A DNA stretch of 64,000 bases from positions 1 to 64,000 of the forward strand of contig JAIQFI010000028.1 of NCBI GenBank assembly GCA_020073345.1, in the 5' to 3' direction. The notes under the pieces were generated by a model, which saw only the letters and a program-made list of their open reading frames with translations, was not told the DNA's origin and did not search any database. This stretch comes from Terriglobia bacterium (lineage in GTDB: Bacteria > Acidobacteriota > Terriglobia > Bryobacterales > Bryobacteraceae). Below are positions 9,223 to 59,466 of the stretch, piece by piece (the stretch's first letter is position 1; every line of letters begins with the position of its first letter). The translations under genes were made by a program, and so were the position numbers.

Positions 9223-10212
9223 ATGAGACATCGCCTTCTTGTACTATTCAGCGCGTTTTTGATCGTGACCGCGGTGTCTGCGCAGACTGCCAAACCGGCG
9301 GCCCCAGCAGCGGCAAAAAAGTGGACCGCTCCGCGCACTCCTTGGGGCGATCCCGACCTCCAGGGCTGGTTCACCAACCTCCAGGAAGACGGCACCCCGC
9401 TCGAACGCCCCGATCAGTTTGCGGGCCGCTCGCTCGACGACATCAAGGGAGAGGAGCTGGCCAAGATCAAGCGCGACACCCAGAAGCGGACCATCACCAC
9501 CTTCCAGGGGCCCCTGCATGCTCCCGAGAACTGGTGGCAGAAGGATCTCAATCTGGAGAAGGGTAGCCAGGCATGGCTCGTGGTCGACCCGCCTGATGGC
9601 AAGATTCCTCCATTGACGCAGGAGGCCAAGGATCGTGCCGCCGCGCGCGCAGCGGCCCGGCGCGCCAGCGGACGCGGACCGGCGGACTCGTGGGAAGATT
9701 TGAGCCTGTACGACCGCTGCATCACGCGCGGGCTGCCCGGGTCGATGATGCCGGTGATTTACGGCAACTCGTATCAGATCCTGCAATCGCCCGGATTCGT
9801 TTCCATTCGCTATGAAATGGTGCACGAAACCCGCTTAATTCCTCTCGATGGGCGGCCGCACGCCAGCCCCGAGATTCGCTCCTATATGGGGGATCCGCGC
9901 GGCCACTGGGAAGGCGACACGCTGGTGGTGGAAACCACCAATTTCCGCGACGACGGGACCTTTCGCAATGCCAATGGGGCCACGCTTCGGCTGATCGAAC
10001 GTTTCACCCGCACGGCGCCGGATAAAGTGAGGTGGTCGGTTACGGTGGACGATCCTAAAACCTGGACCAGGCCCTGGACGTTCTCGATGCCGCTGACCAT
10101 GGACGACTCTCAGCCGGTCCTCGAGTATTCCTGTCATGAAGGCAACCTGGGATTGCAGAACATCCTGAAGGCGGCGCGTGCCGAAGAGAGGAAGGCAGCC
10201 AATGCGAAATAG
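9223..10212 (+). CDS. Secreted family B protein (paired with DUF6152)
   Basis: A 329-residue exported protein (signal peptide ending VSAQ) of the group called family B here. It shows WGDPDLQGWF near residue 46, RCITRGLPG with the first conserved Cys (about residue 166), a LIPLDGRPH segment, HWEGDTLVVETTNF, and the C-terminal LEYSCHEGN with the second conserved Cys. These marks recur in four other genes of the window at 12208, 20137, 56640 and 58013. It has an extra Ala/Arg-rich insertion around residues 133-150. The DUF6152 gene begins inside its last codons (11-base overlap), so the two are translationally coupled. No catalytic motif is recognised. Confidence 0.8.
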   Translation: MRHRLLVLFSAFLIVTAVSAQTAKPAAPAAAKKWTAPRTPWGDPDLQGWFTNLQEDGTPLERPDQFAGRSLDDIKGEELAKIKRDTQKRTITTFQGPLHAPENWWQKDLNLEKGSQAWLVVDPPDGKIPPLTQEAKDRAAARAAARRASGRGPADSWEDLSLYDRCITRGLPGSMMPVIYGNSYQILQSPGFVSIRYEMVHETRLIPLDGRPHASPEIRSYMGDPRGHWEGDTLVVETTNFRDDGTFRNANGATLRLIERFTRTAPDKVRWSVTVDDPKTWTRPWTFSMPLTMDDSQPVLEYSCHEGNLGLQNILKAARAEERKAANAK

Positions 10213-10603
10213 AGTCTTGTTCTTTCTAACGCTGGTAGCGATTCCCGCGTGGGCTCATCACGCGTTTTCCGCCGAATTCGACGACAAGAAACCGCTCAAG
10301 CTGGTGGGCCGCGTCACCAAGATGGACTGGATCAACCCGCATGCCTGGATCCACATGGATGTGAAGGGCGATGACGGCAAGGTGGTCAGCTGGATGGTCG
10401 AGCTCGGCCCGCCGAACGCGCTGCTCAAGCGCGGCTGGAACAAGAACTCGCTGCCCGAAGGGACCCAGATTATCGTGGATGGCTACCAGTCCAAGGATGG
10501 GGAGCTACGGCTGAACGGCCGGGATCTCACCTTCCCCGACGGGAAGAAACTGTTCGCCGGATCGTCCGGCACGGGCGCACCGGACGAACGTCCCGAGAAG
10601 TAA
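10202..10603 (+). CDS. DUF6152 family secreted protein (family A)
   Basis: The 133-residue product has a very short signal peptide (about 18 residues, ending IPAWA) followed at once by HHAFSAEFDDKKPLKL. The DUF6152 core then shows TKMDWINPH, a DVKGDDGKV stretch and KNSLPEGTQ, and ends FPDGKKLFAG. DUF6152 proteins are periplasmic and uncharacterised. His19-His20 would form the mature N-terminus, and His47 is the conserved NPH histidine. ATG 10202 is chosen because upstream codons lie in the preceding gene and are not signal-like. It forms a B-A pair with the gene at 9223. Confidence 0.88.
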   Translation: MRNRVLFFLTLVAIPAWAHHAFSAEFDDKKPLKLVGRVTKMDWINPHAWIHMDVKGDDGKVVSWMVELGPPNALLKRGWNKNSLPEGTQIIVDGYQSKDGELRLNGRDLTFPDGKKLFAGSSGTGAPDERPEK

Positions 10604-10604
10604 A

Positions 10605-10644
10605 GTAGGGCCGGTCTCCAGACCGGCCATCGGCAGGTCGGCAA
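10605..10644 (+). repeat. Dispersed palindromic repeat (GTAGG type)
   Basis: GTAGG is followed by a near-perfect palindrome, GGCCGGTCT/AGACCGGCC (10609-10617 with 10620-10628), and then ATCGGCAGGTCGG. A similar element lies on the opposite strand at 28387-28410. It starts one base after the DUF6152 stop and could also act as a terminator, although no T-run follows. Confidence 0.6.
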
Positions 10645-10699
10645 TCTGATACCATCAGGTGATGATAGTCTCGCCTGCCACCTCGATGTCGATCCGCCG

Positions 10700-11335
10700 A
10701 TGATTCCGAGAGGATTTCCACCCCGCCGTCCCAGAATTCGTGAGAACGTCAACGAAGCGATCCGTGCACGCGAAGTGCGCGCGGTCTTTCCCGACGGCAC
10801 CGTCGAGGTGCTTCCCACTCCTCAGGCCATTCGCAAAGCCCAGGACCTGGGGCTCGATCTGATTCTGATCGCCCCCACGGCCGAGCCGCCTGTCGCCAAA
10901 GCCATGGACTACGGGCAGTGGCAGTACGAGAACAAAAAGAAGCAGCACGAGGCCAAGCGGAAGCAGCATATCATCCAGGTGAAGGAACTCAAATTCCGTC
11001 CCAACACCGATGATCATGATTACGACTTCAAGAAGAACCACGCCATTCGATTCTTAACGGAAGGGAATCGCGTGAAGGCTGTGGTTCAGTTCCGTGGCCG
11101 TGAGATCGCTCACACGGATCTGGGCAGAAAGCTCCTGCTGCGGTTCGCCGGAGACTTAAGTCAATACGGCACCATCGAATCCCAGCCGCGCCTCGAGGGC
11201 CGTAATGCGCACGTTCTGATCAGCCCGGTCAAGGTAGAGAAGCCGCATACTTCCAAAGAAAAAGATCCCAAGGAAAAAGAGAAAGACAAGCCCAAGCCCG
11301 ACGCGGGCAATGGCGTGCCTCCTGCGTCCGCTTAG
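10700..11335 (+). CDS. infC: Translation initiation factor IF-3
   Basis: The N-domain (RIRENVNEAIRAREVR, then a run ending AKAMDYGQWQYE) and C-domain (IQVKELKFRPNTDDHDY, AVVQFRGREIAHTDLG) match IF-3, which binds the 30S subunit and checks the start codon. The core is followed by about 33 extra residues rich in Lys, Glu and Pro (KEKDPKEKEKDKPKP), which is unusual. The start is ATG 10700; the very next codon is ATT, the rare start codon known for E. coli infC, so autoregulated initiation at ATT 10703 is conceivable. The usual rpmI-rplT partners do not follow; the next gene is convergent. Confidence 0.95.
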   Translation: MIPRGFPPRRPRIRENVNEAIRAREVRAVFPDGTVEVLPTPQAIRKAQDLGLDLILIAPTAEPPVAKAMDYGQWQYENKKKQHEAKRKQHIIQVKELKFRPNTDDHDYDFKKNHAIRFLTEGNRVKAVVQFRGREIAHTDLGRKLLLRFAGDLSQYGTIESQPRLEGRNAHVLISPVKVEKPHTSKEKDPKEKEKDKPKPDAGNGVPPASA

Positions 11336-11350
11336 TTAGCTCCAGGCTTC

Positions 11351-11668
11351 TTACCGCCAGCGGCCTTCACGATAGTGATAGCGGCCGCCCTTGGTTTCCC
11401 AGCGTCCCGCATCCCACCTTGTCCGCCCCCGCGGAGGACGATCCCAGCGGCCTGGAACCCAGGCGTAGCTTCCGCCGCGATAACCCCAGTAGCCGTCGAT
11501 CCAAACAAATCCGGCGCCCGGCGCCACGCCCCGCGCTTCGACTCGTAGTGGCGGCGGTGGCGTCGACGCATAAAATGCATAGCCGCCACCCGCGCAGCCC
11601 GTCAATGAAAGGCCCCCGACCAAAGAAAGCCCGCCCAGTATTACAGCCATTCCTAGTGTCCGTTTCAT
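11351..11668 (-). CDS. YXWGxW-repeat lipoprotein
   Basis: The 105-residue product has a lipoprotein signal (LSLTGCAGG, lipidated Cys at about residue 25). The mature part is then built from Trp/Gly repeats: WIDGYW, WVPGRW, WDAGRW and REGRW. These match the YXWGxW/WXXGXW repeat family of small surface or periplasmic lipoproteins, whose function is unknown. AGGAG lies about 8 bases before ATG 11668. The gene converges with infC, 15 bases apart. Confidence 0.8.
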   Translation of the reverse strand: MKRTLGMAVILGGLSLVGGLSLTGCAGGGYAFYASTPPPPLRVEARGVAPGAGFVWIDGYWGYRGGSYAWVPGRWDRPPRGRTRWDAGRWETKGGRYHYREGRWR

Positions 11669-11806
11669 TGCGCGATCTCCTACCTGTTAGAACGCCCTGG
11701 AGCGGAAAGGGTTCCACGGCTTAATGCCTTCTTCACATTAGGAGTACCGCTGGCCCATGCGGTCATAGCTGTTTCTGTGGCAAAATACAAAGCTGGAGGT
11801 TGTTTA

Positions 11807-12205
11807 ATGGGAGCCAAAGTTCTTATTCTTGCCGCATCTCTGGGCGCTCTACTGACCGTTCCGATGCTGGCGCATCACTCGTTTGGGTCGGAGTACGACG
11901 ACAAGAAACCGCTCAAGTTCGAAAATGTCACTGTCACGAAGCTGGAGTGGACCAATCCGCACGCTCGCTTCTACGTCGACGTGAAGGACGAAAAGGGGAA
12001 AGTCACCAACTGGAATTTCGAACTCGCCAGCCCGAATGTGCTGAAACGCAACGGCTGGACCAAGAACACTCTCAAAGAGGGCGACAAGGTCACCGTAATC
12101 GGTTCGGCCGCTAAGGATGGCGCCAGCCTGGGCCATGCTCAAACCGTCATCGGGGCGGATGGCAAGCGCCTCTTCGCCGGGTCTAACACCGCGGACGGGC
12201 AGTAA
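11807..12205 (+). CDS. DUF6152 family secreted protein (family A)
   Basis: The 132-residue protein has a signal peptide ending VPMLA followed directly by HHSFGSEYDDKKPLKF, then TKLEWTNPHARFYVDVKDEK and RNGWTKNTLKEGDKVTV, and ends DGKRLFAGS. All DUF6152 landmarks are present. A good ribosome site (TGGAGG) lies 8-9 bases before ATG 11807, which fixes the start over an upstream open extension. The family B gene at 12208 starts 2 bases after its stop, forming an A-B pair. A promoter probably lies in the roughly 140-base gap upstream, but no clear hexamers were picked. Confidence 0.88.
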   Translation: MGAKVLILAASLGALLTVPMLAHHSFGSEYDDKKPLKFENVTVTKLEWTNPHARFYVDVKDEKGKVTNWNFELASPNVLKRNGWTKNTLKEGDKVTVIGSAAKDGASLGHAQTVIGADGKRLFAGSNTADGQ

Positions 12206-12207
12206 CC

Positions 12208-13014
12208 GTGAAGAAGAAACTGACGAGCGGGATGATGACCGCCGCGGCGCTGGCGGCCGCGCTTCTGTTGTTGCAGGGCCCGGCCGATTCTCAAGCTCCC
12301 GCGGCCGACGCCAAGGCTCCGGCCAAGGGCGGCGGTAAGGGAAAAGGTAAGGGCAAAGCGCGGCCCACCGGTCCCACTCCCCGCATGGCCGACGGCAAAC
12401 CGGATTTCTCGGGAATCTGGAACGGCGGCGGACCTATCGGCGATATCGCCCAGGGGTTGATGCCGGGAGAAGAGATTTCCCTGACTCCCTGGTCCAAGAA
12501 GATCATGGACACGCGGCTGACGAAGGATGATCCGGAAGCGAATTGCCTGCCTACCGGCGTACCGCGCATTGCACCCTATCCGTGGCGGATCCTTCAGACT
12601 CAGACCCACATCTTCTACCTATTTGAGGGCAACATCCACAGCTTCCGGCAGATCTTTATCGACGGCCGCAAGCATCCCGCCGATCTCGATCCTACTTGGT
12701 ACGGCGATTCGATCGGAACCTGGGATGGCGACACGCTGGTGGTCGACACCATCGGATACAACGACAAATTCTGGTTCGATTTCAGTGGGCACCCGCATTC
12801 CGAGCAGCTTCACACCATCGAACGCATCAACCGGCCGGATTTGGGTGGGCTGGATATCGAAACGCAGATCATCGACCCCGTGGCCTACACCAAGCCCTTT
12901 AAGATCAAGTTCACGGCCACTCTCCGGCCGGGCGAAGAATTGATGGAGTATATCTGCCAGGAGAACCAGCAGGACGCTCAACACCTGCAGGGTCCGGCCG
13001 GACCGCCGAGATAA
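12208..13014 (+). CDS. Secreted family B protein with Gly/Lys linker
   Basis: The 268-residue protein starts at GTG 12208, 2 bases after the DUF6152 stop. After the signal peptide comes a low-complexity KGGGKGKGKGKARP linker, then DGKPDFSGIWNGGG, NCLPTGVPRIAP (first conserved Cys), RQIFIDGRKHP, TWDGDTLVVDTIGY and MEYICQENQQD (second conserved Cys). These are the full set of family B marks. A similar GKGKGKGK linker occurs in the family B gene at 56640. The protein has no recognised catalytic domain. Its role is inferred only from the tight pairing with DUF6152. Confidence 0.8.
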   Translation: MKKKLTSGMMTAAALAAALLLLQGPADSQAPAADAKAPAKGGGKGKGKGKARPTGPTPRMADGKPDFSGIWNGGGPIGDIAQGLMPGEEISLTPWSKKIMDTRLTKDDPEANCLPTGVPRIAPYPWRILQTQTHIFYLFEGNIHSFRQIFIDGRKHPADLDPTWYGDSIGTWDGDTLVVDTIGYNDKFWFDFSGHPHSEQLHTIERINRPDLGGLDIETQIIDPVAYTKPFKIKFTATLRPGEELMEYICQENQQDAQHLQGPAGPPR

Positions 13015-13018
13015 GGCT

Positions 13019-14560
13019 CTACGGAGCCTTACAGGAGAAGTTGGCGGCGTCGTTCGTGCTGCCGACGCCCTTGTAGGTCGCCACCTGCGGATACGGGCAC
13101 AGCGGACGCGTCATATCCACCTTGTTATTCGCGACATGCTCGGCCACGATGGACTCGGGGGCCACGCCGGATTCGCGCCATCGCTCCATCGCGCCCATCA
13201 AATTGAACTGGTTGGGACCAGGACCGCCCTGGCAGTGCCCCATGCCGGGCACCATGAACAGCCGGTACCAGTTGTCCTGCTCGGGACCCATTTTGGCGAG
13301 GACACTCTCGCGATAGTTGATGCTGTTCTCGGGTGAAATCCCCGTATCGTTCCATCCGTGGTAGGTGATGAGCTTTCCGCCGCGAGCCTTGAACTGCGAA
13401 AGATCCGGATTTACGGCATTGATGTAGCCGTGCTTTTCATCCAACGCCGCCACGTCCTTGTTCACGTCGAACGTCCTCCAATCCCAGTTGGGATCCTGAT
13501 GCAAGACTTCCCGATAGCTTCCCAGGGAAAGCGCCGTCGGGGCAGGGCCATTCGCCGCCGACAACAAGCGCCAGGTGCCTTCGCTTCCCATCGCGTACCC
13601 GGGATAGACCAAGGCGCCCTTGGCATTCATCAGCGGACCATGCGCCTTCTTGACCGAATCGACTTGCGCCGCCGTGAGGCAGCCATCTGCCTCGGCGCCT
13701 TTACATAAGAGCGAGCCGTAATCGAAGTTGCACTTGCGCGGATTGTTCAGAAAGCCATCTTTGATTCCGTCGGCCGCGTCACAGGCATCCAGCACGGCTT
13801 TCCCCAGCAGCGTCACTTTGGCCGGCGGAACTGCCGAACCGAATTGCCGCACGGCGGTTTGCAACACGATATCGAAGGCGTGCAGGTGGGTCTGGAAATT
13901 GGCGGGTGCTCCGGCGATGATGGCGTCGAAATCTTCCGGGTAGCGCTGCGCTTCCATTAATCCCTGGCGTCCGCCGGTGGAACAGCCATTCCAGTAAGAC
14001 AAACGAGGACCGCGGCCGTAGAAAGCCGTAATCACGGCCTTGGCCTTGACCGTCATTTCGTGTACGGCGCGATACGAGAAATCGACAATCTTCTCCGGAT
14101 GGCCTACCGCGAATCTAGCGTTGCCGCCTTCGTGGCCGGTGTCGGTGGAAGACGTCGCGTAGCCTTCCTCCACCGCGTTCGCCAGCGCCGTGTAGCTGAT
14201 GACTCCGGCCCATCCACCGCCGCCGACCGCTTCATACTTTCCGTTCCACGCCGCGCCGAGAGGGAGCCAGACTTCGATCTTGATGTCGGAATCGGGCGAA
14301 GGTTTGAGGGTCGCTAACAAGCGGCAGTATGCCGGCAGCATTTGAGGCGCCGGGGTCGCCGCAGGGGGCGGCGGGGGCGGATCGATCGCGTCCAGCTGCG
14401 GGGCCGGTGGCGGCGCGGGATTCACGAACGCCCCGGCCGGCACGGTCGTGACCTTGGTGATGGTCGTGTCGGGCAGCTTCAGCGACTGCAACTGCTCGCA
14501 CGGAGTCTGGGCAGATACAACCGGTCCCGCGACAGCCAGCAGAATGAGAGCGCGATTCAT
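13019..14560 (-). CDS. Tannase/feruloyl esterase family protein
   Basis: A 513-residue exported esterase (signal peptide ending VVSAQ). It carries the tannase-family nucleophile motif YWNGCSTGGRQG (Ser in GCSTGG), a later YHGWNDTGISP segment with the acid Asp, and MVPGMGHCQGG with the catalytic His next to a Cys that pairs with the nucleophile-side Cys in this family. Members cleave ester bonds in gallate or ferulate conjugates of plant polymers. A proline-rich linker (IDPPPPPPAATP) follows the signal peptide. It converges with the family B gene, 4 bases away. The exact ester substrate is unknown. Confidence 0.88.
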   Translation of the reverse strand: MNRALILLAVAGPVVSAQTPCEQLQSLKLPDTTITKVTTVPAGAFVNPAPPPAPQLDAIDPPPPPPAATPAPQMLPAYCRLLATLKPSPDSDIKIEVWLPLGAAWNGKYEAVGGGGWAGVISYTALANAVEEGYATSSTDTGHEGGNARFAVGHPEKIVDFSYRAVHEMTVKAKAVITAFYGRGPRLSYWNGCSTGGRQGLMEAQRYPEDFDAIIAGAPANFQTHLHAFDIVLQTAVRQFGSAVPPAKVTLLGKAVLDACDAADGIKDGFLNNPRKCNFDYGSLLCKGAEADGCLTAAQVDSVKKAHGPLMNAKGALVYPGYAMGSEGTWRLLSAANGPAPTALSLGSYREVLHQDPNWDWRTFDVNKDVAALDEKHGYINAVNPDLSQFKARGGKLITYHGWNDTGISPENSINYRESVLAKMGPEQDNWYRLFMVPGMGHCQGGPGPNQFNLMGAMERWRESGVAPESIVAEHVANNKVDMTRPLCPYPQVATYKGVGSTNDAANFSCKAP

Positions 14561-15619: not shown

Positions 15620-16012
15620 ATGAGCTATAGGATCAGTGCTTCCATCGCCCTGGGGATTATGCTGCTGGCGGGCGTGGCATGGGCGCACCACAACATGTCG
15701 GCACTATACGACTTCAACAATCGAGTCGCCATGACTGGCACGCTCACCAAGTTTGACTGGCGGAATCCCCACATCGAGCTGATTGTGGATGCCAAAGGCG
15801 ATAAGGACCAGATGGAGACCTGGACGCTGGAGGGGCCGCCACCCAGCTTTTTCCGAAACCGCGACGTCGCCAAGAGCGATTTCGAGGGCGCTTTTGGGAA
15901 ATCTGTTTCCTTCGAGGCGAGTCGCGCCCGGGACGGCTCCAAAGCCGGCCTGCTGCGGACTATGACGCTGCCAGGCGGCAAAGTCGTATCGGCGTGTCCG
16001 CAAAATTGCTAA
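15620..16012 (+). CDS. Divergent DUF6152 family secreted protein (family A)
   Basis: The 130-residue protein has a signal peptide ending GVAWA followed by HHNMSALYDFNNRV, then TLTKFDWRNPHIELIVDAKG. It lacks the usual EYDDKKP motif and the GW...TLKxGD segment is altered, but the His-His start, DWxNPH and the overall length identify DUF6152. It ends with a private CPQNC, two cysteines in five residues, which could bind metal or form a disulfide. No family B gene is adjacent; instead two TolB-like propeller genes follow after 58 bases. The candidate ECF promoter upstream links it to the neighbouring sigma factor, as inference. Confidence 0.8.
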   Translation: MSYRISASIALGIMLLAGVAWAHHNMSALYDFNNRVAMTGTLTKFDWRNPHIELIVDAKGDKDQMETWTLEGPPPSFFRNRDVAKSDFEGAFGKSVSFEASRARDGSKAGLLRTMTLPGGKVVSACPQNC

Positions 16013-16070
16013 AAACTCCATTCTAAAAGTGCACCGTTGGGTCTGGGCGTCCCGCCCAAGGAGGTCTCGC

Positions 16071-17954
16071 GTGAAGAGGTCTTGCCAGATTGCCATGGTT
16101 ACCGCAGTGGCTGCATTGGCTGCCGCCTTGATGGTTCCGTTGCCTGGACTCGGCCAGAGCACGGACGACGAAAAGGCCAAAGCCAAGGCGGCCGCAAAAG
16201 CCGCCGCCAAAGCCAAACAGAACGCCAAGAACTTCGAGAACAACGCCGCGGTGATCACCTTCTACGACCGCGAGGGGAAGACCGTGGGGACCGCCGGCGA
16301 GCGCGCGCTGTACGAGGAAACCGTGCTGTCTCCGGACCGGACGCGCGTAGCGGTGGTCAAGGATGACCAGGAAGCGGAAAATGCAGATCTGTGGATTTTG
16401 GATATCGCCACGGGCAAAAGCACTCGCCTCACCACCAGCGCGAAGGACGAGTTTGTACAGGCGCCGGTGTGGTCGCCGGACGGCCGCCAGGTGGCTTATG
16501 TCACGATTCGAAAGGGCAGCGAGGGTCTGTACCGGCGAGCCTCGAATGGCGAGGGCCCCGAGGAACTCTTGTACAAGAATCCCGGCGCATTCCTGAACCT
16601 CACCGACTGGTCTCAAGACGGACGTTTCCTCACCTTTGCGAAGTCGGACTTATCGGGAGGAGTTCTATACATTCTGCCGCTCGCCGGCGAGGGCGAGCGC
16701 AAACCCGTGGAGGTCTTTAGCAGTAAGTCGCGCATGTTTGGACCGCGCATTTCTCCCGACGGCCGCTTCCTGTCTTACCTGGTGGTGAACTCCGGCGCAA
16801 GGAACGAAGTCTTTGTGCGGCCGATTGACGCCGGGGCGGGCCAGGGGCCCTGGCAGGTGTCGGAAGGCTCCCGGAGCATCGCTTCCTGGCGCGGCGATGG
16901 CAAGGAACTCTACTATCTGGGCCTGGACGGCGCCGTGATGGTGGCGGAGGTCGGCACCTCCCCAGCCTTTACTTTCACAAAACCCAAGGTGCTGTTCCGC
17001 CCGCCGGGGGCGGTTCCCGACTTCGTCAATAACATCAGCCGCGACGGCGAGCGATTCCTCACCTTACCGCCGCCCAGAGGACAGCAACTTCAGCAGATCA
17101 CGGTGTACGACCGGGAAGGAAAGGTCGTGAGCAAAGTAGGCGAGCCCGGCCAGTATTTCCAACCCGCGTTTTCGCCCGACGGGACACGTCTAGCGGTCAT
17201 GAAGAACGATCTCAAAACCGGACAAGCGGACATCTGGACCTTCGACATCGCCACGGGGAAGGGCACGGCGTTGACCCACGATCTGCTGCCGAAGAATACG
17301 CCCATGTGGTCTCCGGACGGCCGCCAGATTCTGTACACATCCTTTCGCGATCCCTACAACGCGGTCTTTCGCCGGGCTTCCGATGGAACCGGCAGCGAGG
17401 AATTGCTGTTCCGCTATACTCCGGGCGCGGGTTTGAATCTCACTGATATTTCCCCGGACGGGAAGTTCCTGGCCTGCGCTTCCGGGGGAGTGTTGCTCGT
17501 GGTCCCGCTGACCGGGACGGACCCGCTGGCGCGCAAGGCCATCGAGTATTCGCGGGACGAATTCGATTTGAACGCGGGAAGATTCTCCCCCGACGGCCGG
17601 TTCATGGCCTACCGCTCGAACGAAGACGATCCCGACCGGGGCGAGGTCTACGTGCGGGCCTTCAATGCGTCCACGGGAACGGCCGGCGAGGGGAAATGGA
17701 AACTGTCGAACAAGGGCGCCGCGGGCATGCAATTCTGGCGAGGGGACGGCAAGGAGTTTTTCTTCCGGCAGTTTAACGAACCAGCGATAGAAGACATGGT
17801 GGTGATGTCGGCTGAGGTCACGACCACTCCGGGGTTCCAGGCGGAAACACCCAAACCCCTGTTCAAGCTACCCGGTCCGATTAATGGAAACCTTGGAAAC
17901 ATCAGCCGCGATGGGCAGCGGTTCGTGTTCGCCATCAATGTGCCCGCGCGCTGA
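16071..17954 (+). CDS. Secreted TolB-like WD40/PD40 beta-propeller protein, copy 1
   Basis: GTG 16071 is chosen because a perfect AAGGAGGT lies 5 bases before it. After the signal peptide (ending LGQS) there is an Ala/Lys-rich stretch, then two halves, each opening with ITFYDREGKTV or ITVYDREGKVV. Each half has several PD40/TolB blades (VWSPDGRQVAYVT, FSPDGTRLAVMKND, MWSPDGRQILYTS, ISPDGRFLSYLV). Length is 627 residues. These propellers bind peptides or proteins in the periplasm; no protease domain follows, unlike in related prolyl peptidases. A close paralogue follows after 11 bases, so this is a tandem duplication. The ligand is unknown. Confidence 0.85.
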   Translation: MKRSCQIAMVTAVAALAAALMVPLPGLGQSTDDEKAKAKAAAKAAAKAKQNAKNFENNAAVITFYDREGKTVGTAGERALYEETVLSPDRTRVAVVKDDQEAENADLWILDIATGKSTRLTTSAKDEFVQAPVWSPDGRQVAYVTIRKGSEGLYRRASNGEGPEELLYKNPGAFLNLTDWSQDGRFLTFAKSDLSGGVLYILPLAGEGERKPVEVFSSKSRMFGPRISPDGRFLSYLVVNSGARNEVFVRPIDAGAGQGPWQVSEGSRSIASWRGDGKELYYLGLDGAVMVAEVGTSPAFTFTKPKVLFRPPGAVPDFVNNISRDGERFLTLPPPRGQQLQQITVYDREGKVVSKVGEPGQYFQPAFSPDGTRLAVMKNDLKTGQADIWTFDIATGKGTALTHDLLPKNTPMWSPDGRQILYTSFRDPYNAVFRRASDGTGSEELLFRYTPGAGLNLTDISPDGKFLACASGGVLLVVPLTGTDPLARKAIEYSRDEFDLNAGRFSPDGRFMAYRSNEDDPDRGEVYVRAFNASTGTAGEGKWKLSNKGAAGMQFWRGDGKEFFFRQFNEPAIEDMVVMSAEVTTTPGFQAETPKPLFKLPGPINGNLGNISRDGQRFVFAINVPAR

Positions 17955-20136: not shown

Positions 20137-20982
20137 TTATCGGGCGGGGATGGCCGGGCTGGGCGGCTCCGGCAGGGGAGCCGTGATGCGCCGGTGCTCC
20201 ATGGTTTTCTCGTGCTGGTCGCAAAACGCTTCGATGAGCTCGGTGTCGGGCTGCAGTTCGAGCGTCGTTTTGACGGTCCAGGGTTTCAGATAGGCCTTCG
20301 GATCCGTAATGGTGATGCTGAGATCCATGTGCCCGAAATCCGTCCGCCGGAACCGCTCGGTGACGCGCAAAGCATCGCTGTTAGGCCGCGCCTTCTTGGT
20401 ATCGAGCCAACCTCCGTCCTTGAAACCGGTGGTATCGATTACGAATGTGTCGCCGTCCCATCGGCCCACGGAGTATCCCAACCAGGTTGGTTCCCCCGCT
20501 GCCATAAGAGGCCGGCCATCGGTGAACACCTGGCGGAAGATCATGCCGACCAAGGTTTCATACAGAATCGCCGTGATCGCAGGCGTCTGAAGAACCTTGA
20601 ACGGACCGCCCCCGAAATCAATGCGTGGAACACCCGGCGGCAGGCAATAGCCGTACGGATCATCGACATGATCGCGGCCTTCGCGTTGGGCCTGAATTTT
20701 CGAGGCCCACGCCGTCATCTGAACGTCATCCGGTTTCAGGTCCTTCGCAAGGTCGAAGAACAGACTTCGCGTAAAGCATCCGCCTCCGTCGTAGAGGGCG
20801 CATTCGGCGGCCCAGATGCCGGACAGGTCGGGCCTGCCGTCCGCTAAGCGTGGAGCCGGCGCCGATAGATTGGGCTTGCCGTCGGCAAGCCGAGGAGTTC
20901 CTGGTGTTGCATAATTCAGCCACTGCGCGGCAGCGGTTCCGGCCAGGAGGACCGTGCCGACCGTTCTATAGATTGCCAGCAT
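20137..20982 (-). CDS. Secreted family B protein next to an amidohydrolase
   Basis: The roughly 280-residue exported protein carries all family B marks: DGRPDLSGIWAAEC, YCLPPGVPRIDFGG (first conserved Cys), RQVFTDGRPLM, RWDGDTFVIDTTGF, RRTDFGHMDLSITI and IEAFCDQHEKT (second conserved Cys). Two extra cysteines (ECALYDGGGCF) are private to this copy. Before the domain there is a duplicated short segment, RLADGKPNLS and RLADGRPDLS. ATG 20982 lies inside the 3' end of the upstream amidohydrolase gene (17-base overlap), so the two are coupled. No DUF6152 gene is adjacent, which sets this copy apart from the others. Confidence 0.78.
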   Translation of the reverse strand: MLAIYRTVGTVLLAGTAAAQWLNYATPGTPRLADGKPNLSAPAPRLADGRPDLSGIWAAECALYDGGGCFTRSLFFDLAKDLKPDDVQMTAWASKIQAQREGRDHVDDPYGYCLPPGVPRIDFGGGPFKVLQTPAITAILYETLVGMIFRQVFTDGRPLMAAGEPTWLGYSVGRWDGDTFVIDTTGFKDGGWLDTKKARPNSDALRVTERFRRTDFGHMDLSITITDPKAYLKPWTVKTTLELQPDTELIEAFCDQHEKTMEHRRITAPLPEPPSPAIPAR

Positions 20983-22648
20983 TGTGCACGATCTTCCCAT
21001 CCACTATAGTCAGGACGGAGCGGATCTTCTTGATCTCGGCATCAGGCACGGCGAAATAATCGCGGTCCAATACCGCCAGATCGGCCAGCTTGCCGCGCTC
21101 GATGGAGCCGATCTTCTCTTCCATGCGAAGGAACCAACTATTGTTGCGAGTGAACAGGCGCAGCGCCTCGGCACGCGTGAGCTGCTGGTCGGCGTTCACT
21201 TTATCGCCAAACGAATTCACGCCCGTGGTCGCGTAATAAATGTGGAGCCACGGATTCAGCGGCGCGATGTGGACGCCGTCGCCATGAATGCCCACCTGGA
21301 TGCCGTGATCCATGATGGTTCGGAACGGCGGGCCTGCCACCATCTTCGGATCCGAAGAAGTCACCCAGCGGAACGCGCCCATTTCTACGCCGCAGCCCAG
21401 CGCCTTGAGCCGGTTGAGCAGGTCGGCATTGACCTGAGGGACGTGGTGGACCACCCAGCGCTTCTGCGTAATATCGAACTCGCGGTTGACGGCTTCGTAA
21501 GCCTCGACCACTTGGGTCAGTCCAGCAAGGTTTTGCACCGCGTTTTCGTTGCGCCAGCCGGCCTCGGCAACCAGCCGCTGGGCTTCTCTCCAAACGGCGC
21601 CGCTGGCGAGTGGCGCCGCCCACTCTCCGATCGAGCCGGTCTGCATCATGTCGTCGCCGAAGAACTGGAACTGGTTGCGGAGACGCTCCTTCAACTCGGG
21701 CAGATTTGGGTCGCTCTGATTCTGCAGGAAATTCATCTGCAGGCGGATGATGGTCTTTCCTTCGCGGTGGAGCTCGAGCCAGGGATCGTACATGCGGTAC
21801 TGGTCGAGGTTGGACAGGATCTGGCTCGGATGAAGAGGGCCGGGCGTGGGGAACAACACCTGATCCAGATGCGCGGTGAGGCCGACGCTGGCCGAGTAGT
21901 TCATCGCGTCGAGCGTGCTGCGCTTGCGATCCGCGAAGGTCTGCATCCGGCGCAAGAGGAACAGGGCAGACGCCGACGGATTGCCTGCTTGGCCGGCGCC
22001 GGCGATCGCACCGGTGGGCGAGACGTTGATTTTCTTGATATCCGGATGGACCGGCGGCGCGGCATCGACAGCGTCGAAGTACGCTTTGCCGAGGCTGTTG
22101 GTCGCGCAGGGACCGGTAAAGCGTTCGTACAGCAGCACGGGACGATCGGGAACCGCCTGGTCGAGCTCGGCGAGCGTGGGATGACGATGCTCGGCCCACT
22201 GGTTGGGATGCCAGCCGCCCATGGAGGTGATCCACGCGCCTTGAGGAACGTCCCTGCGGCGCGCGGCCAGGGCTTCCTGGATCTCGCGAATCGAGGTGGT
22301 GTTCTCGAGGATGGTGTGATAGCCGGGACGGTTCGCGAGGCTCACGCTGTGGATGTGAGGTTCGACCAGTCCGGGCACCACGGTGCGTCCTGCGAGATCG
22401 ATCACGCGAACGCCCGGCCCGGCGGCCGGCGCCGCGTTCACGGCCAGAAACCGCCCATTCCGGATCGTCACGGACGTGGCGATGGTGTTGGCCGCGTCCA
22501 TGGTGTGGATCCGGCCGTTGGTCAGCACCAGAGTCTCCTCGGGCGGGATGTTCTGCGCCGAGACGACGACTGCGGCGGGGCCAGCTGCAAGAGCGGCCGC
22601 TCCGGCGGTAACACTCAAAAATTTCCGGCGCGATCTTTTCTCTCTCAT
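20966..22648 (-). CDS. Tat-exported amidohydrolase (YtcJ-like, amidohydrolase 3)
   Basis: The 560-residue product starts with a twin-arginine-type signal (RSRRKFLSVTAGAAALAAG). The enzyme domain shows LTNGRIHTMDAANTIA, VVPGLVEPHIHSVS (HxH metal motif), WVVHHVPQ, QVGIHGDGVHIAP, and the closing IGSIERGKLADLAVLDRD of metal-dependent amidohydrolases. Related YtcJ-type enzymes hydrolyse amides or related C-N bonds, with undefined substrates. Export of a folded metalloenzyme by Tat is consistent. It is followed by an overlapping family B gene. It diverges from an ABC exporter gene 39 bases away. Confidence 0.85.
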   Translation of the reverse strand: MREKRSRRKFLSVTAGAAALAAGPAAVVVSAQNIPPEETLVLTNGRIHTMDAANTIATSVTIRNGRFLAVNAAPAAGPGVRVIDLAGRTVVPGLVEPHIHSVSLANRPGYHTILENTTSIREIQEALAARRRDVPQGAWITSMGGWHPNQWAEHRHPTLAELDQAVPDRPVLLYERFTGPCATNSLGKAYFDAVDAAPPVHPDIKKINVSPTGAIAGAGQAGNPSASALFLLRRMQTFADRKRSTLDAMNYSASVGLTAHLDQVLFPTPGPLHPSQILSNLDQYRMYDPWLELHREGKTIIRLQMNFLQNQSDPNLPELKERLRNQFQFFGDDMMQTGSIGEWAAPLASGAVWREAQRLVAEAGWRNENAVQNLAGLTQVVEAYEAVNREFDITQKRWVVHHVPQVNADLLNRLKALGCGVEMGAFRWVTSSDPKMVAGPPFRTIMDHGIQVGIHGDGVHIAPLNPWLHIYYATTGVNSFGDKVNADQQLTRAEALRLFTRNNSWFLRMEEKIGSIERGKLADLAVLDRDYFAVPDAEIKKIRSVLTIVDGKIVHNAGNL

Positions 22649-53004: not shown

Positions 53005-53747
53005 TCGTCCTGGCCTTGGGTTCGTTTTGTTGTGGGAGTTTGTGGGGCCAAGCCGGTCCTTACGTGCGCCAGGAAGTGGACCAGGCCGGCTCGGATCGCG
53101 GCAAGCGCGTATACACGCAGTTTTGCATCAATTGCCACGGCGCACTGGCGAAGGGCACCGAACAAGGGCCAGATCTAATTCGATCTCCCCTGGTGCTGCG
53201 CGACCGCTTGGGCGATCAGATCGGACCGGCTCTGAAAAAGCTGGCGAATCACAAGACCGATCTGACGCAGGCGCAAGTGGCGGACCTCACGCATTTCCTC
53301 AAAGACCAGATCGAGACGACGGCGAAGAATCGCAATCCGGAGCATCCGCCGAACGTGCTCACGGGCAATCGGGAAGCCGGCCGAGCCTATTTCAACGGCG
53401 CGGGGAAGTGCAACACTTGTCATTCCCCATCGGGCGATCTGGCGGGTGTCGGACGCAAGTACATGCCGGTCGACCTTCAGCAGCGTTTCCTGTTCCCGCG
53501 CCGCAGTAAGCCGATCCAAGTTACGGTGACGCCTTCGGGCGGGCAGCCCGTCACCGGAGCTCTGGAGCGCATCGACGATTTCAACGTTGCTGTGCGCGAC
53601 GCTTCGGGCGAGTACCGGACGTTTACACGCACTTCCGCGCTCAGAGTCGACATCAATGATCCTCTCGCGGCGCACAATCAGATGCTCGATGTTTACACTG
53701 ACCAGGACATGCACAACGTGGTCCGATATCTGGAGTCCTTGAAGTGA
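52992..53747 (+). CDS. Dihaem cytochrome c with C-terminal beta domain
   Basis: The 251-residue exported protein has two haem c motifs: FCINCHGALAKG (CxxCH, about residue 35) and KCNTCHSPSGDL (about residue 139). After the second haem is an unusual region of about 95 residues with beta character (IQVTVTPSGGQPVTGALERI, TRTSALRVDINDPL) and the closing DMHNVVRYLESLK. It probably accepts electrons from the PQQ dehydrogenase encoded next. GTG 53744 of the dehydrogenase overlaps its stop. The partial similarity of the tail to oxidoreductase-associated domains is weak. Confidence 0.88.
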   Translation: MRRVVVLALGSFCCGSLWGQAGPYVRQEVDQAGSDRGKRVYTQFCINCHGALAKGTEQGPDLIRSPLVLRDRLGDQIGPALKKLANHKTDLTQAQVADLTHFLKDQIETTAKNRNPEHPPNVLTGNREAGRAYFNGAGKCNTCHSPSGDLAGVGRKYMPVDLQQRFLFPRRSKPIQVTVTPSGGQPVTGALERIDDFNVAVRDASGEYRTFTRTSALRVDINDPLAAHNQMLDVYTDQDMHNVVRYLESLK

Positions 53748-56639: not shown

Positions 56640-57533
56640 TTACTGTTCGCCGCGGTACATGTGCTTCGCGTCGCGATTGTTTTCCTGGCACACGTATTCG
56701 TACATCTCGTCGTTGGGATTCCACGGAATCGCCCAGCCACCCGACCACTTGGCCGTATAGGCGCCTGGATCGTCAATGGTCGCGATGTAGCGCAGCGTGT
56801 CGTATTCGGGGCGCTCGAAGGTCTCTGTCAGCTTGAGGTATTCGGTGTGCGGAATGCCCTCCCGGCTAAGCCAGAAACGCTGATTGTAGTTGGTGGTTTC
56901 GACCACCAGCTTTTCGCCTTCCCAGTGACCGATCGAATAGCCATGGAAACTCGGATCGATGTCTTTCGGGCGCTCCCGGCCGTCCATGTAGATCACGCGC
57001 CAGGTGTGCGGACCGCCGACACCCATCACATAGATCCGCTCAAGCTCGGGGATATCGACGATTTCAAAGCCGTACGGAGTGTGATACAAGCGCGGACCGC
57101 CGGACGATTTGCAGCGGACATGCGGGTCGTCGGCGGTGTTGTTGGCTTGCCGCGATTCATACAACGCTCGCGCCCAATCCTGGAAAGGCACATCCGGGAT
57201 CTTGAGGTTGGTGGGAAGATTGACCTGGTTGTTGTCGAGGCCCCGCCCGACGTTGGTGGCGATGGTCGCGCCGGCGTTGCCGTTCCACACACCTTTTTCT
57301 CCCGGCAGCGGACCGAGCAATACATGCCCGTCGGGGCCATGAGGAGTCGGGCGGGAAGGCGGACGCTGCTTGCCCTTGCCTTTTCCCTTTCCGAACTGGC
57401 CCTGTTGGCCCGGATTCTGTCCCGGAGGCGGCGTCAAACCCTGGTTCTGCTGCCCAAAGGAGGGCACGGCAAATGAGAAAATCACCGCCGCGGTTGCGAC
57501 TGCGGCCAAGGCAACAATGTCACGATTTCGCAC
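56640..57533 (-). CDS. Secreted family B protein with Gly/Lys linker
   Basis: The 297-residue protein starts at GTG 57533 after a GGGAGGG site. After the signal peptide it has a QGQFGKGKGKGKQRPPS linker, similar to that in the gene at 12208, then DGHVLLGPLPGEKGVW, WARALYESRQ, CKSSGGPRLY (first conserved Cys), RVIYMDGRERPKDIDPSF, HWEGEKLVVETTNY, TETFERPEYDTLRYIATIDD and YEYVCQENNRDAKHMYR (second conserved Cys). The GHVxLGxxPGxKGxW opening is shared only with the fusion gene at 58013, so these two form one subgroup. The DUF6152 gene lies 46 bases upstream on the same strand. Confidence 0.82.
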   Translation of the reverse strand: MRNRDIVALAAVATAAVIFSFAVPSFGQQNQGLTPPPGQNPGQQGQFGKGKGKGKQRPPSRPTPHGPDGHVLLGPLPGEKGVWNGNAGATIATNVGRGLDNNQVNLPTNLKIPDVPFQDWARALYESRQANNTADDPHVRCKSSGGPRLYHTPYGFEIVDIPELERIYVMGVGGPHTWRVIYMDGRERPKDIDPSFHGYSIGHWEGEKLVVETTNYNQRFWLSREGIPHTEYLKLTETFERPEYDTLRYIATIDDPGAYTAKWSGGWAIPWNPNDEMYEYVCQENNRDAKHMYRGEQ

Positions 57534-57579
57534 TTCGACCCTCCCACTGCAATATCTCAAGGTATTCGACCGGCGAGCT

Positions 57580-57981
57580 CTACGGAATGGTGCCTTCGCT
57601 CGAAGCGCCGCCCAGTTTCTGTCCGGTGGTGGCCAGCGTCACAGAGCGCGCGTTGCCGTGCTTGCCGCCGTCCTTGGCCAGAGTTCCGCTGACGATGACC
57701 TCATCGCCTTCTTTCATGGTGTTCTTCTTCCAGCCGCCCCGTTCCAGGAGTCTGGGAGGACCCATCTCAAACGCCCAGTTGGCGGTTTTGCCGCTCTCAT
57801 CCTTCACGTCGATGTAGAAATAGACGTGCGGATTCATCCAGTCGACTTTGGTGATGACGCCCTTCAGTTCAATGGGCTTCTTGGCGTCATACTCGGCCGC
57901 GAAGGAGTGGTGCGCCAGCAGCGGGGCCGCCGCCAGAAGAACGCTGGTTACTCCTAGAATCGCAAATGCGCGCAGTCTCAT
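57580..57981 (-). CDS. DUF6152 family secreted protein (family A)
   Basis: The 133-residue protein has a signal peptide ending AAPLLA directly before HHSFAAEYDAKKPIEL, then TKVDWMNPHVYFYIDVKDES and GWKKNTMKEGDEVIVSGTLA, the standard DUF6152 pattern. ATG 57981 is preferred over ATG 57987, because AAGGAG is only 2 bases from the latter and 8 bases from the former. The predicted mature N-terminus is His-His. It is the second of the three A/B genes in the operon that begins at 59882 and lies between the fusion gene and the family B gene. Confidence 0.9.
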   Translation of the reverse strand: MRLRAFAILGVTSVLLAAAPLLAHHSFAAEYDAKKPIELKGVITKVDWMNPHVYFYIDVKDESGKTANWAFEMGPPRLLERGGWKKNTMKEGDEVIVSGTLAKDGGKHGNARSVTLATTGQKLGGASSEGTIP

Positions 57982-58012
57982 GGTCATAGCTCCTTAGGGT
58001 GTGCCTGAAGTC

Positions 58013-59161
58013 TTAAGGTGTAGAGGTTGTATGTTTACCGGATAAAGACTCGGTCTCGTGATTGCTCTCATCACAAAAATATTCTTCGACGTCGGCAGGA
58101 ACCCACGAAAGGTTAAAGCTGCCGGTCCAAGGCCGTGTGTAAGCCCCTGGATCGTTTACCGTTACTTCATATTTTAGCGTGTCGAAGTCGGGCCGGGTGA
58201 TGCGCTCGGTCAACGCCAGTTTCTCGGTATGAGGGAGACCGCCATTGGTGAACCAGAATCGCTCGGTGAACGCAGTAGTGTCGACCACCAGCGTGTCGCC
58301 CTCCCATTTCCCGGATGAATACCCGTAGTACGTGGGAGTTACTTCCTCCGGATCGGGGTTTTTGCGCCCGTCGAGGAAAATGAGGCGCCAATTGCGATTC
58401 CCGCCCGCGGACATGATAAAAATCCGCTGCCGATCGGGCTGTTCGAGGATCTGGACTCCATAACGATCCTGGAATTGGCGCGGCCCACCAGGCGGGAGGC
58501 AGTAAGCCATGGGATCGTCCTTCAGATTGTTGCGCTGGCGATACTCGTATAGCGCTTTCGCCCATGGTTGGAACGGGGCGATCTTACCGGCATCGGCGAT
58601 GTTGGCAAGCTGACCCTGATAATTCATGCGAATGTTGCCCGCGCTAGTCTCATACAATCCTGCAGGATTGGCATCGGCCCAAAAGCCCTTGCCACCCGGA
58701 ACTGCGCCCAAACGAACATGTCCGTTCGGCCAGTGAGGAGCCTCTTTCCCGGTGCGCGCGCCAGCGAGCTTGATGGCCGCGGGGTTCGCCGCGGCTATTT
58801 TCTTGCCGCTCGCCAGGGTCAGCGATTTGCCGCTGGCCTGCTTGCTCCCGTCGCGCGACAGGATCCCTTCCGCGGTCACGGTGTCGCCCACCTTAACGAC
58901 GTCGCGGTTCCAGCCATTGGCGCTGCGCTTCAGATCGAGCGTGCTGTCGTACTCGACGGCCCAATTGGTGAACTTGCCATTCGAATCGCGGACGTCGAGA
59001 TAGAGATAGACGTGGGGATTGGTCCAATCGAACTTGGTGACCGTTCCGCGCAAGGTGATGGGTTTCTTGTCGTCGTACTCGGCCGCGATGGAGTGGTGTG
59101 CCCACACCGGCGCGATCACACTCAAACCCAACATCAGATATCTGAACGCCCTGCGTCTCAT
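58013..59161 (-). CDS. DUF6152-family B fusion protein
   Basis: The 382-residue secreted protein joins the two families in one chain. Residues about 1-130 are DUF6152: signal peptide ending APVWA, HHSIAAEYDDKKPITL, TKFDWTNPHVYLYLDVRD and VVKVGDTVTAEGILSRDG. Residues about 145-382 are family B: GHVRLGAVPGGKGFWA, CLPPGGPRQF (first conserved Cys), RLIFLDGRKNP, KWEGDTLVVDTTAF, TERITRPDFDTLKYEVTV and EEYFCDESNHE (second conserved Cys). ATG 59161 overlaps the cytochrome stop by one base and follows GAGGAG; the adjoining GTG is a less likely start. Normal A and B genes follow it directly. Confidence 0.9.
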   Translation of the reverse strand: MRRRAFRYLMLGLSVIAPVWAHHSIAAEYDDKKPITLRGTVTKFDWTNPHVYLYLDVRDSNGKFTNWAVEYDSTLDLKRSANGWNRDVVKVGDTVTAEGILSRDGSKQASGKSLTLASGKKIAAANPAAIKLAGARTGKEAPHWPNGHVRLGAVPGGKGFWADANPAGLYETSAGNIRMNYQGQLANIADAGKIAPFQPWAKALYEYRQRNNLKDDPMAYCLPPGGPRQFQDRYGVQILEQPDRQRIFIMSAGGNRNWRLIFLDGRKNPDPEEVTPTYYGYSSGKWEGDTLVVDTTAFTERFWFTNGGLPHTEKLALTERITRPDFDTLKYEVTVNDPGAYTRPWTGSFNLSWVPADVEEYFCDESNHETESLSGKHTTSTP

Positions 59162-59466
59162 CACTTCTCCTCTACCGGCCCAAAATTCTTCTCGAGGTAA
59201 TCCAGGATCAATGAGAACTCCTCATCGGTCACCGGAGCGCCCTCGGAAACCATGCCTTTAATCACGTTCTCCCACTGGTTCCTGGTAAAAGCCTGACCTT
59301 TGAGTCTGGCCAATCCGTGGCAAAAACTGCAAATCTCCTCCACCAGTTTCCTGCCTGGACCGTCGGGAAGGCGAGTATTGTCGGCCGCAAGGACGTTGGC
59401 GGCAAACACCGCTGCCGCAGCCAGCAACAAAATCGTCGATAAGCGCACGGTGCTTGGTCGCAACAT
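59161..59466 (-). CDS. Small monohaem cytochrome c (101 aa)
   Basis: The 101-residue exported protein has a signal peptide ending VLAADN and a single haem c motif, CSFCHGLARLKG (CxxCH). It ends VTDEEFSLILDYLEKNFGP. No Met ligand is obvious: the first Met after the haem motif, in VIKGMVSEGAP, is plausible as the axial ligand. ATG 59466 starts inside a run before the signal peptide; longer starts are unlikely. It overlaps the fusion gene by one base and lies 8 bases downstream of the previous gene, so it is part of the A/B operon and suggests redox chemistry there. Confidence 0.85.
   Translation of the reverse strand: MLRPSTVRLSTILLLAAAAVFAANVLAADNTRLPDGPGRKLVEEICSFCHGLARLKGQAFTRNQWENVIKGMVSEGAPVTDEEFSLILDYLEKNFGPVEEK

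What the first reader, a model, noticed from the sequence alone, without database searches (positions are those of the whole stretch)
9223..13014. Recurrent DUF6152 / family B gene pairs: a probable two-part periplasmic system
Five family A (DUF6152) and five family B modules occur in 64 kb. Pairs are adjacent at 9223/10202 (B-A, 11-base overlap), 11807/12208 (A-B, 2 bases apart) and 57580/56640 (A-B, 46 bases apart). Both orders are found, so the pairing is not a single inherited duplication. The two families almost certainly act together, yet neither has a known function to my knowledge. Seen directly: coordinates, overlaps and motifs. Inferred: a shared function.
Basis: partly seen in the sequence, partly recalled or inferred. 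Interest (0 to 1): 0.82.

Follow-up and report, generated by a model that had tools for sequence, protein, structure and literature searches.

The report
Paired exported DUF6152 and calycin-like proteins
Some bacteria carry dozens of copies of a two-gene module for exported proteins of unknown function: one protein appears to start with two histidines that could grip a metal, the other looks like a barrel that could carry a small molecule, and the two travel together across genomes.

Summary
Confirmed. All five DUF6152 (A) and five B modules are where stated; one of each forms a single ORF (58013-59164, minus). The pairing is not local chance. In the window's genome (6.23 Mb; Bryobacterales-like) 57 of 73 A copies have a B within 500 bp, 3.6 expected. 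So do 94 of 104 distinct A hits in other Acidobacteriota and 19 of 34 in genome G040 of another family. In 119 phylum genomes A occurs in 10, B in those 10 plus one. Pairs also occur in Sphingomonadales and Sinorhizobium plasmids, and partners diverge together (r = 0.61).

B is the larger family; a subset pairs.

A is modelled as an OB-fold. His-His follows the apparent signal peptide in 72 of 73 own copies and all 113 others examined, as in N-terminal-His metal-binding proteins. B has no Pfam, NCBIfam or PDB sequence match; its model resembles a calycin barrel, weakly. Some A genes adjoin DUF6644 membrane proteins instead of, or besides, B.

Best reading: an exported metal-site protein working with a small-molecule-binding barrel. 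Metal binding, contact and chemistry are unproven.

The parts
9223..10212 (+). Family B gene (329 aa) with exported-type N-terminus; its end overlaps the next A gene
   Evidence: 213.6 bits to the B profile
10202..10603 (+). Family A gene, DUF6152; His-His codons at 10256-10261 directly after the apparent signal peptide (..AWA|HH), NPH at 10334-10342
   Evidence: (PF19649 E 3e-33)
11807..12205 (+). Family A gene, DUF6152; His-His codons at 11873-11878
   Evidence: E 2e-28
12208..13014 (+). Family B gene (268 aa); first row of the modelled alignment, calycin-like barrel
15620..16012 (+). Family A gene with no B within 2.6 kb; His-His codons at 15686-15691
   Evidence: (E 1e-15)
20137..21000 (-). 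Family B gene with no adjacent A
   Evidence: (316.7 bits)
56640..57560 (-). Family B gene (open from TTG 57560; GTG at 57533 possible start)
57580..57987 (-). Family A gene, DUF6152; near-mature form modelled as an OB-fold; His-His codons at 57907-57912
   Evidence: (E 3e-31)
58013..59164 (-). Natural A-B fusion, 383 aa in one ORF: signal peptide, His-His, DUF6152 domain, then B domain (58025-58801)

Best explanation
A and B form a two-part module that works outside the cytoplasm. A (DUF6152) is a small exported OB-fold protein. Removal of its signal peptide appears to expose His-His as its first two residues, and these, with an internal Pro-His, are the obvious ligands of a metal ion, most likely copper. 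B is an exported barrel of calycin (lipocalin/fatty-acid-binding) type that most likely holds a small hydrophobic or aromatic molecule. The paralogue numbers (73 A, at least 172 B) fit diversification for many ligands. Proposed working: each B presents or captures a particular ligand, and its cognate A supplies the metal site next to it, either for redox chemistry on the ligand or to load or strip a metal-ligand complex. A can also be served by DUF6644 membrane proteins, as CopC is by CopD. Shown by computation: exported-type N-termini, pairing, fusion, co-occurrence, co-divergence, near-invariant HH. Inferred: metal binding (about 0.75), copper in particular (about 0.5), B as ligand binder (about 0.6), direct A-B contact (about 0.8), chemistry on the ligand (about 0.3).
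For: Pairing: 57 of 73 own A have a B within 500 bp, 55 same strand, 3.6 expected; with the smaller B list 47 of 73 within 300 bp, all same strand, 2.6 expected. Other genomes: 94 of 104 distinct A hits in 78 loci. G040: 19 of 34, 1.2 expected. 119 phylum genomes: A in 10, B in the same 10 plus G092. Sphingomonadales plasmids A-A-B, B-A, B-A-B-A; Sinorhizobium mexicanum A-B. Three fusions in the own genome. Co-divergence of 55 pairs r = 0.61, 0 of 2000 permutations as high. Metal site: HH at the apparent mature N-terminus in 72 of 73 own, 104 of 104 distinct other Acidobacteriota and 9 of 9 alphaproteobacterial domains; control 0 HH and 6 single His among 569 signal-peptide-like non-A genes. 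HH, NPH, W, E and two G invariant in 32 rows. Folds: A OB-fold, pLDDT 88; B calycin-like, pLDDT 84. DUF6644: 10 of 14 matches within 3 kb of an A, 0.9 expected; 3 bases after A in two Paracoccus loci. Precedent: four classes of N-terminal-His metalloproteins (PMC12537917; abstract, outline, section 5 part 1 of 4 and passages seen).
Against: No metal or ligand binding has been measured and no signal-peptide predictor was run. The first ten residues of the A model average pLDDT 66 and no coordinates were available, so it is not shown that the N-terminal His pair and the internal His come together. The A model has one PDB match at E <= 0.001, B none (best 5e-3, TM about 0.3 by query length). 111 of 172 B and 16 of 73 A lack the partner within 500 bp; two Paracoccus loci have A without B. 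Fusions were seen only in the own genome: none in 78 other loci and no plasmid record covering 80% of the fused query in one place; two of the three are sister copies. One fused A has lost HH. No recurring enzyme neighbour supports a pathway: PQQ dehydrogenases (6 of 66, 5.8 expected) and long CarboxypepD_reg/TonB-type frames (5 of 51, 6.5 expected) are not enriched. Co-divergence can come from joint duplication of linked genes alone.
Confidence: 0.45

Rival explanations
1. Metal handling only: A is a periplasmic metallochaperone or sequestering protein like CopC or the recently described N-terminal-His proteins, DUF6644 is its membrane partner as CopD is for CopC, and B is a client or a binder of a metal-chelating small molecule. 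No catalysis takes place.
For: HH at the apparent mature N-terminus. A next to DUF6644 in Paracoccus and in the own genome; one DUF6644 member scores with CopD PF05425 at E 3e-4, below Pfam's cut-off. A-A-B next to a TonB receptor in Croceibacterium. PMC12537917 reports only weak peroxidase activity for DUF4198 (section 5 part 1 seen).
Against: 73 A copies in one genome seem far more than metal homeostasis needs. TonB-type frames are not enriched near A/B. No copper or nickel genes stood out among the 45 largest neighbour families listed, though most of these were judged by eye, not by Pfam.
Confidence: 0.3
2. A and B are linked because they were duplicated together as neighbours (hitchhiking), with separate functions.
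For: Co-divergence is expected from joint duplication alone; 111 of 172 B and 16 of 73 A are unpaired; 2 of 3 fusions are sister copies.
Against: Fusions of probably two origins, pairs in Sphingomonadales and Sinorhizobium, both gene orders, and presence or absence together over 119 genomes.
Confidence: 0.1
3. B is itself an exported enzyme of unknown reaction and A is its accessory or maturation factor.
For: B has 11 invariant residues in 30 rows, among them R, E, D and two Cys; B occurs without A more often than A without B; three B domains share a frame with a CarboxypepD_reg domain.
Against: The 50 listed Foldseek neighbours of B are ligand-binding proteins of the FABP/UnaG type rather than enzymes; invariant Cys and Gly may be structural.
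Confidence: 0.15

Closest known systems
N-terminal-His metalloproteins found by signal strapping: DUF4198, DUF6702, Ang-1, Ang-2 (PMC12537917)
   Same: Secreted bacterial proteins whose signal-peptide cleavage exposes His as a metal ligand; partly of DUF origin.
   Different: DUF4198 is described as a beta-sandwich and DUF6702 and the anglerases as sharing a beta-sandwich architecture, with N-terminal His in 79% (DUF4198) or 65% (DUF6702) of members; DUF6152 is modelled as an OB-fold, has His-His in nearly all copies examined, and has a partner B. The word DUF6152 is in no paper of the library; supplements were not searched.
CopC/CopD and YcnI/YcnJ copper pairs (PMC7529816, PMC8424229: start of abstracts in the search listings only)
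   Same: Small exported histidine-brace copper protein with a membrane partner; compare A plus DUF6644.
   Different: CopC is a beta-sandwich (recalled), not an OB-fold; of five DUF6644-type members scanned one touches CopD, below cut-off; B has no counterpart.
CusF, periplasmic OB-fold copper/silver chaperone (recalled, no call)
   Same: Exported OB-fold with conserved His and Trp.
   Different: CusF uses internal Met/His/Trp (recalled), not a His at the mature N-terminus; no CusF match among the 5 profile hits in PDB sequences or the 50 listed Foldseek rows.
Calycins: lipocalins, fatty-acid-binding proteins, UnaG
   Same: B's modelled barrel matches UnaG and FABP chains best; a GxW stands near the start of the domain, as in lipocalins (recalled).
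   Different: E only 5e-3, about 10% identity, a chain of about 270 against about 135 residues, no sequence match in PDB; membership not established.

Membership tests
DUF6152 (PF19649) | Score over the Pfam gathering cut-off (27 bits) | tested here: met
   All five window copies 57.7-114.5 bits
N-terminal-His metalloprotein | His is residue 1 after signal-peptide cleavage | tested here: met
   By sequence pattern only: 72 of 73 own and 9 of 9 alphaproteobacterial, 104 of 104 distinct others; no signal-peptide predictor and no protein sequencing
N-terminal-His metalloprotein | Binds a transition metal through His1 | not testable with these tools
   Needs purified protein
Copper histidine brace | His1 amine and side chain plus a second His in T-shape | tested here: inconclusive
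   An internal Pro-His is conserved, but no coordinates were given and the model's N-terminus is low confidence
OB-fold | Five-stranded barrel with helix between strands 3 and 4 | tested here: met
   Order E-E-E-H-E-E after a short N-terminal helix; the 50 listed Foldseek matches, top E 1e-3, are proteins with OB-folds such as LysRS, PriB and SSB (fold class recalled)
Calycin/lipocalin (for B) | Meander beta-barrel with a ligand cavity | tested here: inconclusive
   Nine strands; Foldseek best UnaG and FABP, prob 0.99, E 5e-3, target TM 0.5-0.6; cavity not examined
DUF6644 (PF20349) | Score over cut-off 27 | tested here: met
   10 of 14 own matches over it; of 5 neighbour-family members scanned 2 over it, 3 under (26.8, 24.1, 23.9)
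CopD (PF05425) | Score over cut-off 32.1 | tested here: not met
   Best 21.6 bits, for one of five DUF6644-type members

The most novel reading that the evidence does not exclude
DUF6152-B is a new, massively diversified class of exported copper-dependent oxygenase or oxidase for small molecules: A provides an N-terminal His-His copper site on an OB-fold and B, a calycin barrel, selects the substrate. Bacteria with more than 50 pairs would thus carry a broad extracellular oxidation repertoire, none of it annotated.
Probability: 0.15. Interest if true: 0.92.

Novelty: new variant of a known kind. Interest (0 to 1): 0.7.

Why it matters
In the window's genome the two families account for at least 245 domains in 6.2 Mb (73 A, 172 B), and no paper in the library searched names DUF6152 or DUF6644. 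The pairing gives each unknown a partner, the His-His gives a cheap and sharp test (does mature A bind copper?), and the natural fusions give a single-chain construct in which an interface can be solved.

Tried and rejected
PQQ dehydrogenases as the catalytic neighbour: they recur beside A/B and one lies at 53744-55312 in the window, but they are not enriched: 6 of 66 within 1.5 kb, 5.8 expected; 13 of 66 within 3 kb, 9.0 expected. The 66 are what I kept, by eye one per gene, of 100 matches, which scored 88 of 131 candidates.

TonB-type receptors as a third component: suggested by Croceibacterium, not supported in the own genome: 5 of 51 long frames within 1 kb, 6.5 expected; 8 of 51 within 2 kb, 8.0 expected. 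The 51 are frames of 815 aa or more picked from 116 CarboxypepD_reg matches (150 of 173 candidates scored); a few long frames with weak matches were left out.

Known names for B: none in Pfam at E up to 1, NCBIfam (two hits at E 0.14 and 0.23) or PDB sequences (one search's three hits at E 0.65-0.84). The DUF6152 profile touches 6xi3, a biofilm adhesin, at E 2e-5 for the whole chain, but no single stretch passes by itself; not followed.

Gene order as proof of independent pairing: not accepted. Tandem arrays (A-B-A-B, B-B-A) make the label ambiguous, and at least one fusion (C8) bears a wrong order label, because the B match reaches back past the A start.

Chance pairing: rejected.
Full report
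OBSERVATION. Reading the ORFs and scanning them confirms DUF6152 (A) at 10202, 11807, 15620 and 57987 (minus) and inside 58013-59164 (minus), with PF19649 bit scores of 58-115 against a cut-off of 27. B occurs at 9223, 12208, 56640, 20137 and inside the same 58013-59164. B copies are homologous to each other but have no match in Pfam, only noise in NCBIfam and none in PDB sequences by profile. The finding's gaps and overlaps are right (for the start codons). The ORF 58013-59164 is a natural A-B fusion of 383 aa.

THE SCALE. The window is contig C76 of a 6.23 Mb, 97.5% complete genome. That genome has 73 DUF6152 matches and at least 150 B matches, the scoring cap of the search. In 86 segments (1.17 Mb) taken around these hits I count 73 A domains and 172 B ORFs; the rest of the genome was not recounted, so 172 is a lower bound. 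Eight relatives of the same genus hold 1-57 A matches, four of other genera of the order 0-4. The best named matches are Bryobacterales and other Acidobacteriota.

IS THE PAIRING MORE THAN CHANCE? With the first B list (154), 47 of 73 A have a B within 300 bp, all 47 on the same strand, where 2.6 are expected from the share of the genome that lies near a B. With the fuller list 57 of 73 have one within 500 bp, 55 on the same strand, 20 with B upstream and 35 downstream; 3.6 are expected, a 16-fold excess. Three single-ORF fusions exist: C2 near 55.2-56.5 kb, C8 near 60.3-61.6 kb, and the window's. The B parts of the C8 and window fusions are sisters with strong support, so two origins are likelier than three. 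No fusion was found in 78 loci of other genomes. In those 78 loci, chosen by similarity to one A subfamily, 95 of 105 A hits have a B within 500 bp; without one duplicate 94 of 104, 87 on the same strand. In G040, a genome of another family in the phylum, 19 of 34 A have a B within 500 bp, 17 on the same strand, 1.2 expected. In an even draw of 119 phylum genomes, A is found in 10 and B in 11, the same 10 plus G092, a 75% complete genome of the same genus as one of them; 108 have neither. Fisher p = 1e-13 is optimistic because the genomes are related, and at most 22 B candidates a genome were scored, so a weak B could have been missed.

OUTSIDE THE PHYLUM. Among 72,556 plasmid records A is found in 18 and B in 8 (E up to 1e-3, one query each), the 8 being Novosphingobium (6), Sphingobium and Croceibacterium. 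Looked at closely: Croceibacterium has A-A-B followed by a TonB receptor, Novosphingobium humi B-A with two divergent DUF6644 genes, Sphingobium B-A-B-A (modules confirmed by profile). The 10 A-positive records without a B match are 6 Paracoccus and 4 Sinorhizobium; I looked at two of each. Sinorhizobium mexicanum does have a divergent B whose open frame starts at the end of A's (E 1.5e-22), missed by tblastn; in the two Paracoccus loci and the other Sinorhizobium locus no B was found within 7-8 kb. In the two Paracoccus loci A is followed 3 bases later by DUF6644.

Only 61 of 172 B have an A within 500 bp. B is therefore the larger family and has a life without A, for instance an array of nine B genes on C60. 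The argument from gene order is weak: labels change 11 times on the B tree and 12 on the A tree of 55 pairs, of which strongly supported branches of the B tree force 6, but in 22 isolated pairs (14 A-B, 8 B-A) they force one change only. What the sequences do show is that partners diverged together: the distance matrices of 55 pairs (fusions among them) correlate at 0.61, with 0 of 2000 permutations as high, and at 0.75 and 0.62 within each order. Joint duplication may explain part or all of that, so it supports lasting partnership, not contact.

WHAT A IS. In 32 aligned A proteins the invariant residues are His1, His2, N-P-H at mature residues 27-29, a Trp, a Glu and two Gly. The His pair comes straight after the apparent signal peptide, judged by motif, not by a predictor: 72 of 73 own copies have HH there, 67 of them after Ala; 104 of 104 distinct domains of other Acidobacteriota, 102 after Ala or Gly; 9 of 9 alphaproteobacterial ones. 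NPH is in 71 of 73 and 104 of 104; the alphaproteobacterial copies keep P-H. Among 569 other genes with a signal-peptide-like start by a simple rule of mine, out of 1012 genes called in the A/B-rich segments, 6 have His at +1 and none has His-His. The one exception among own A is the fused copy on C8. A strict requirement for His at a mature N-terminus is the mark of N-terminal-His metal sites such as LPMO and CopC (search-listing abstracts) and the four classes of PMC12537917 (abstract, outline, section 5 part 1 of 4 and passages seen). The A model, nearly mature (two residues too long), is confident (pLDDT 88, pTM 0.80) and its listed PDB neighbours are OB-fold proteins. The N-terminal residues are poorly placed, so the site's geometry is open.

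WHAT B IS. Its model (pLDDT 84, pTM 0.78; residues 23-46 below 50) has nine strands, and the best PDB matches are UnaG and fatty-acid-binding proteins, at E 5e-3 and probability 0.99. That is suggestive of a calycin, not proof. Two Cys are invariant in 30 rows, compatible with a disulphide in an exported protein. Three B domains share an open frame with a CarboxypepD_reg domain (C8 near 54 kb and 13 kb, C59 near 51 kb), again a secreted context.

THIRD PARTNER. A neighbour family of 14 small membrane proteins (9 of 14 within 1.5 kb of an A) is DUF6644 or close to it. A separate search finds 14 DUF6644 matches in the genome (the two sets overlap, they are not the same); 10 of these lie within 3 kb of an A, 0.9 expected, but several are tandem copies, so the independent number is smaller. 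One His in what looks like a membrane segment, and R, K and W, are kept in 13 of 13 aligned: 10 own, 1 Paracoccus, 2 Novosphingobium. The other two neighbours tested are not enriched: PQQ dehydrogenases, TonB-type frames.

MECHANISM. The anatomy fits an exported metal-site protein A acting beside a ligand-holding barrel B, with a membrane protein serving A in some loci. Whether A's metal does chemistry on B's ligand or whether the pair only moves metal or metal complexes cannot be told from sequence. The large, diverged copy number speaks for ligand diversity and against simple metal homeostasis. I put 0.45 on the combined statement (metal-site A working with ligand-binding B) and 0.15 on the bold form, a new class of copper oxygenases.

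NOVELTY. No paper in the held library names DUF6152, DUF6644, PF19649 or PF20349. N-terminal-His metalloproteins are a known kind; an OB-fold member with His-His and a barrel partner was not found described by these searches. I therefore rate it a new variant of a known kind, with a real chance of more.

Noticed in passing
L212 (own genome C60:69837-86963), B genes at C60 74.8-82.0 kb: Nine B genes in a head-to-tail array with no A found nearby; it holds the top-scoring B of the genome.
   Followed up: no
own genome C8:60277-61551 (inside L157): A-B fusion whose A domain has lost the N-terminal His-His while keeping NPH; a natural control for the metal-site idea.
   Followed up: partly
own genome C8:53746-54696, C8:12579-13349, C59:50955-51890: B domains in one open frame with a CarboxypepD_reg domain.
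   Followed up: partly
L162 (C15:26718-36999), L234 (C85), L152 (C2), L182 (C34): DUF6644-type membrane proteins, often in tandem pairs next to A; single invariant His per protein, which might join across a dimer.
   Followed up: partly
window 16029-17954 and 17966-19885: Two tandem ~640 aa paralogues, by eye beta-propeller-like (WSPDG repeats), the first 16 bases after the stop of the lone A at 15620; not scanned.
   Followed up: no
window 13019-14560, 53744-55312, 60026-61066: Tannase/feruloyl esterase, PQQ dehydrogenase and putative cyclase genes around the A/B clusters, hinting at plant-phenolic catabolism; enrichment was tested only for PQQ and not found.
   Followed up: partly
L246 and L249 (Paracoccus plasmids): The A-DUF6644 unit sits beside phenylacetate catabolism and penicillin acylase genes in both.
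   Followed up: no
Genome contigs record CALQCC020000009.1 (L093): A metagenome bin titled Bordetella parapertussis holds a DUF6152 gene 66% identical to the Acidobacteriota query; the title is probably a misassignment.
   Followed up: no
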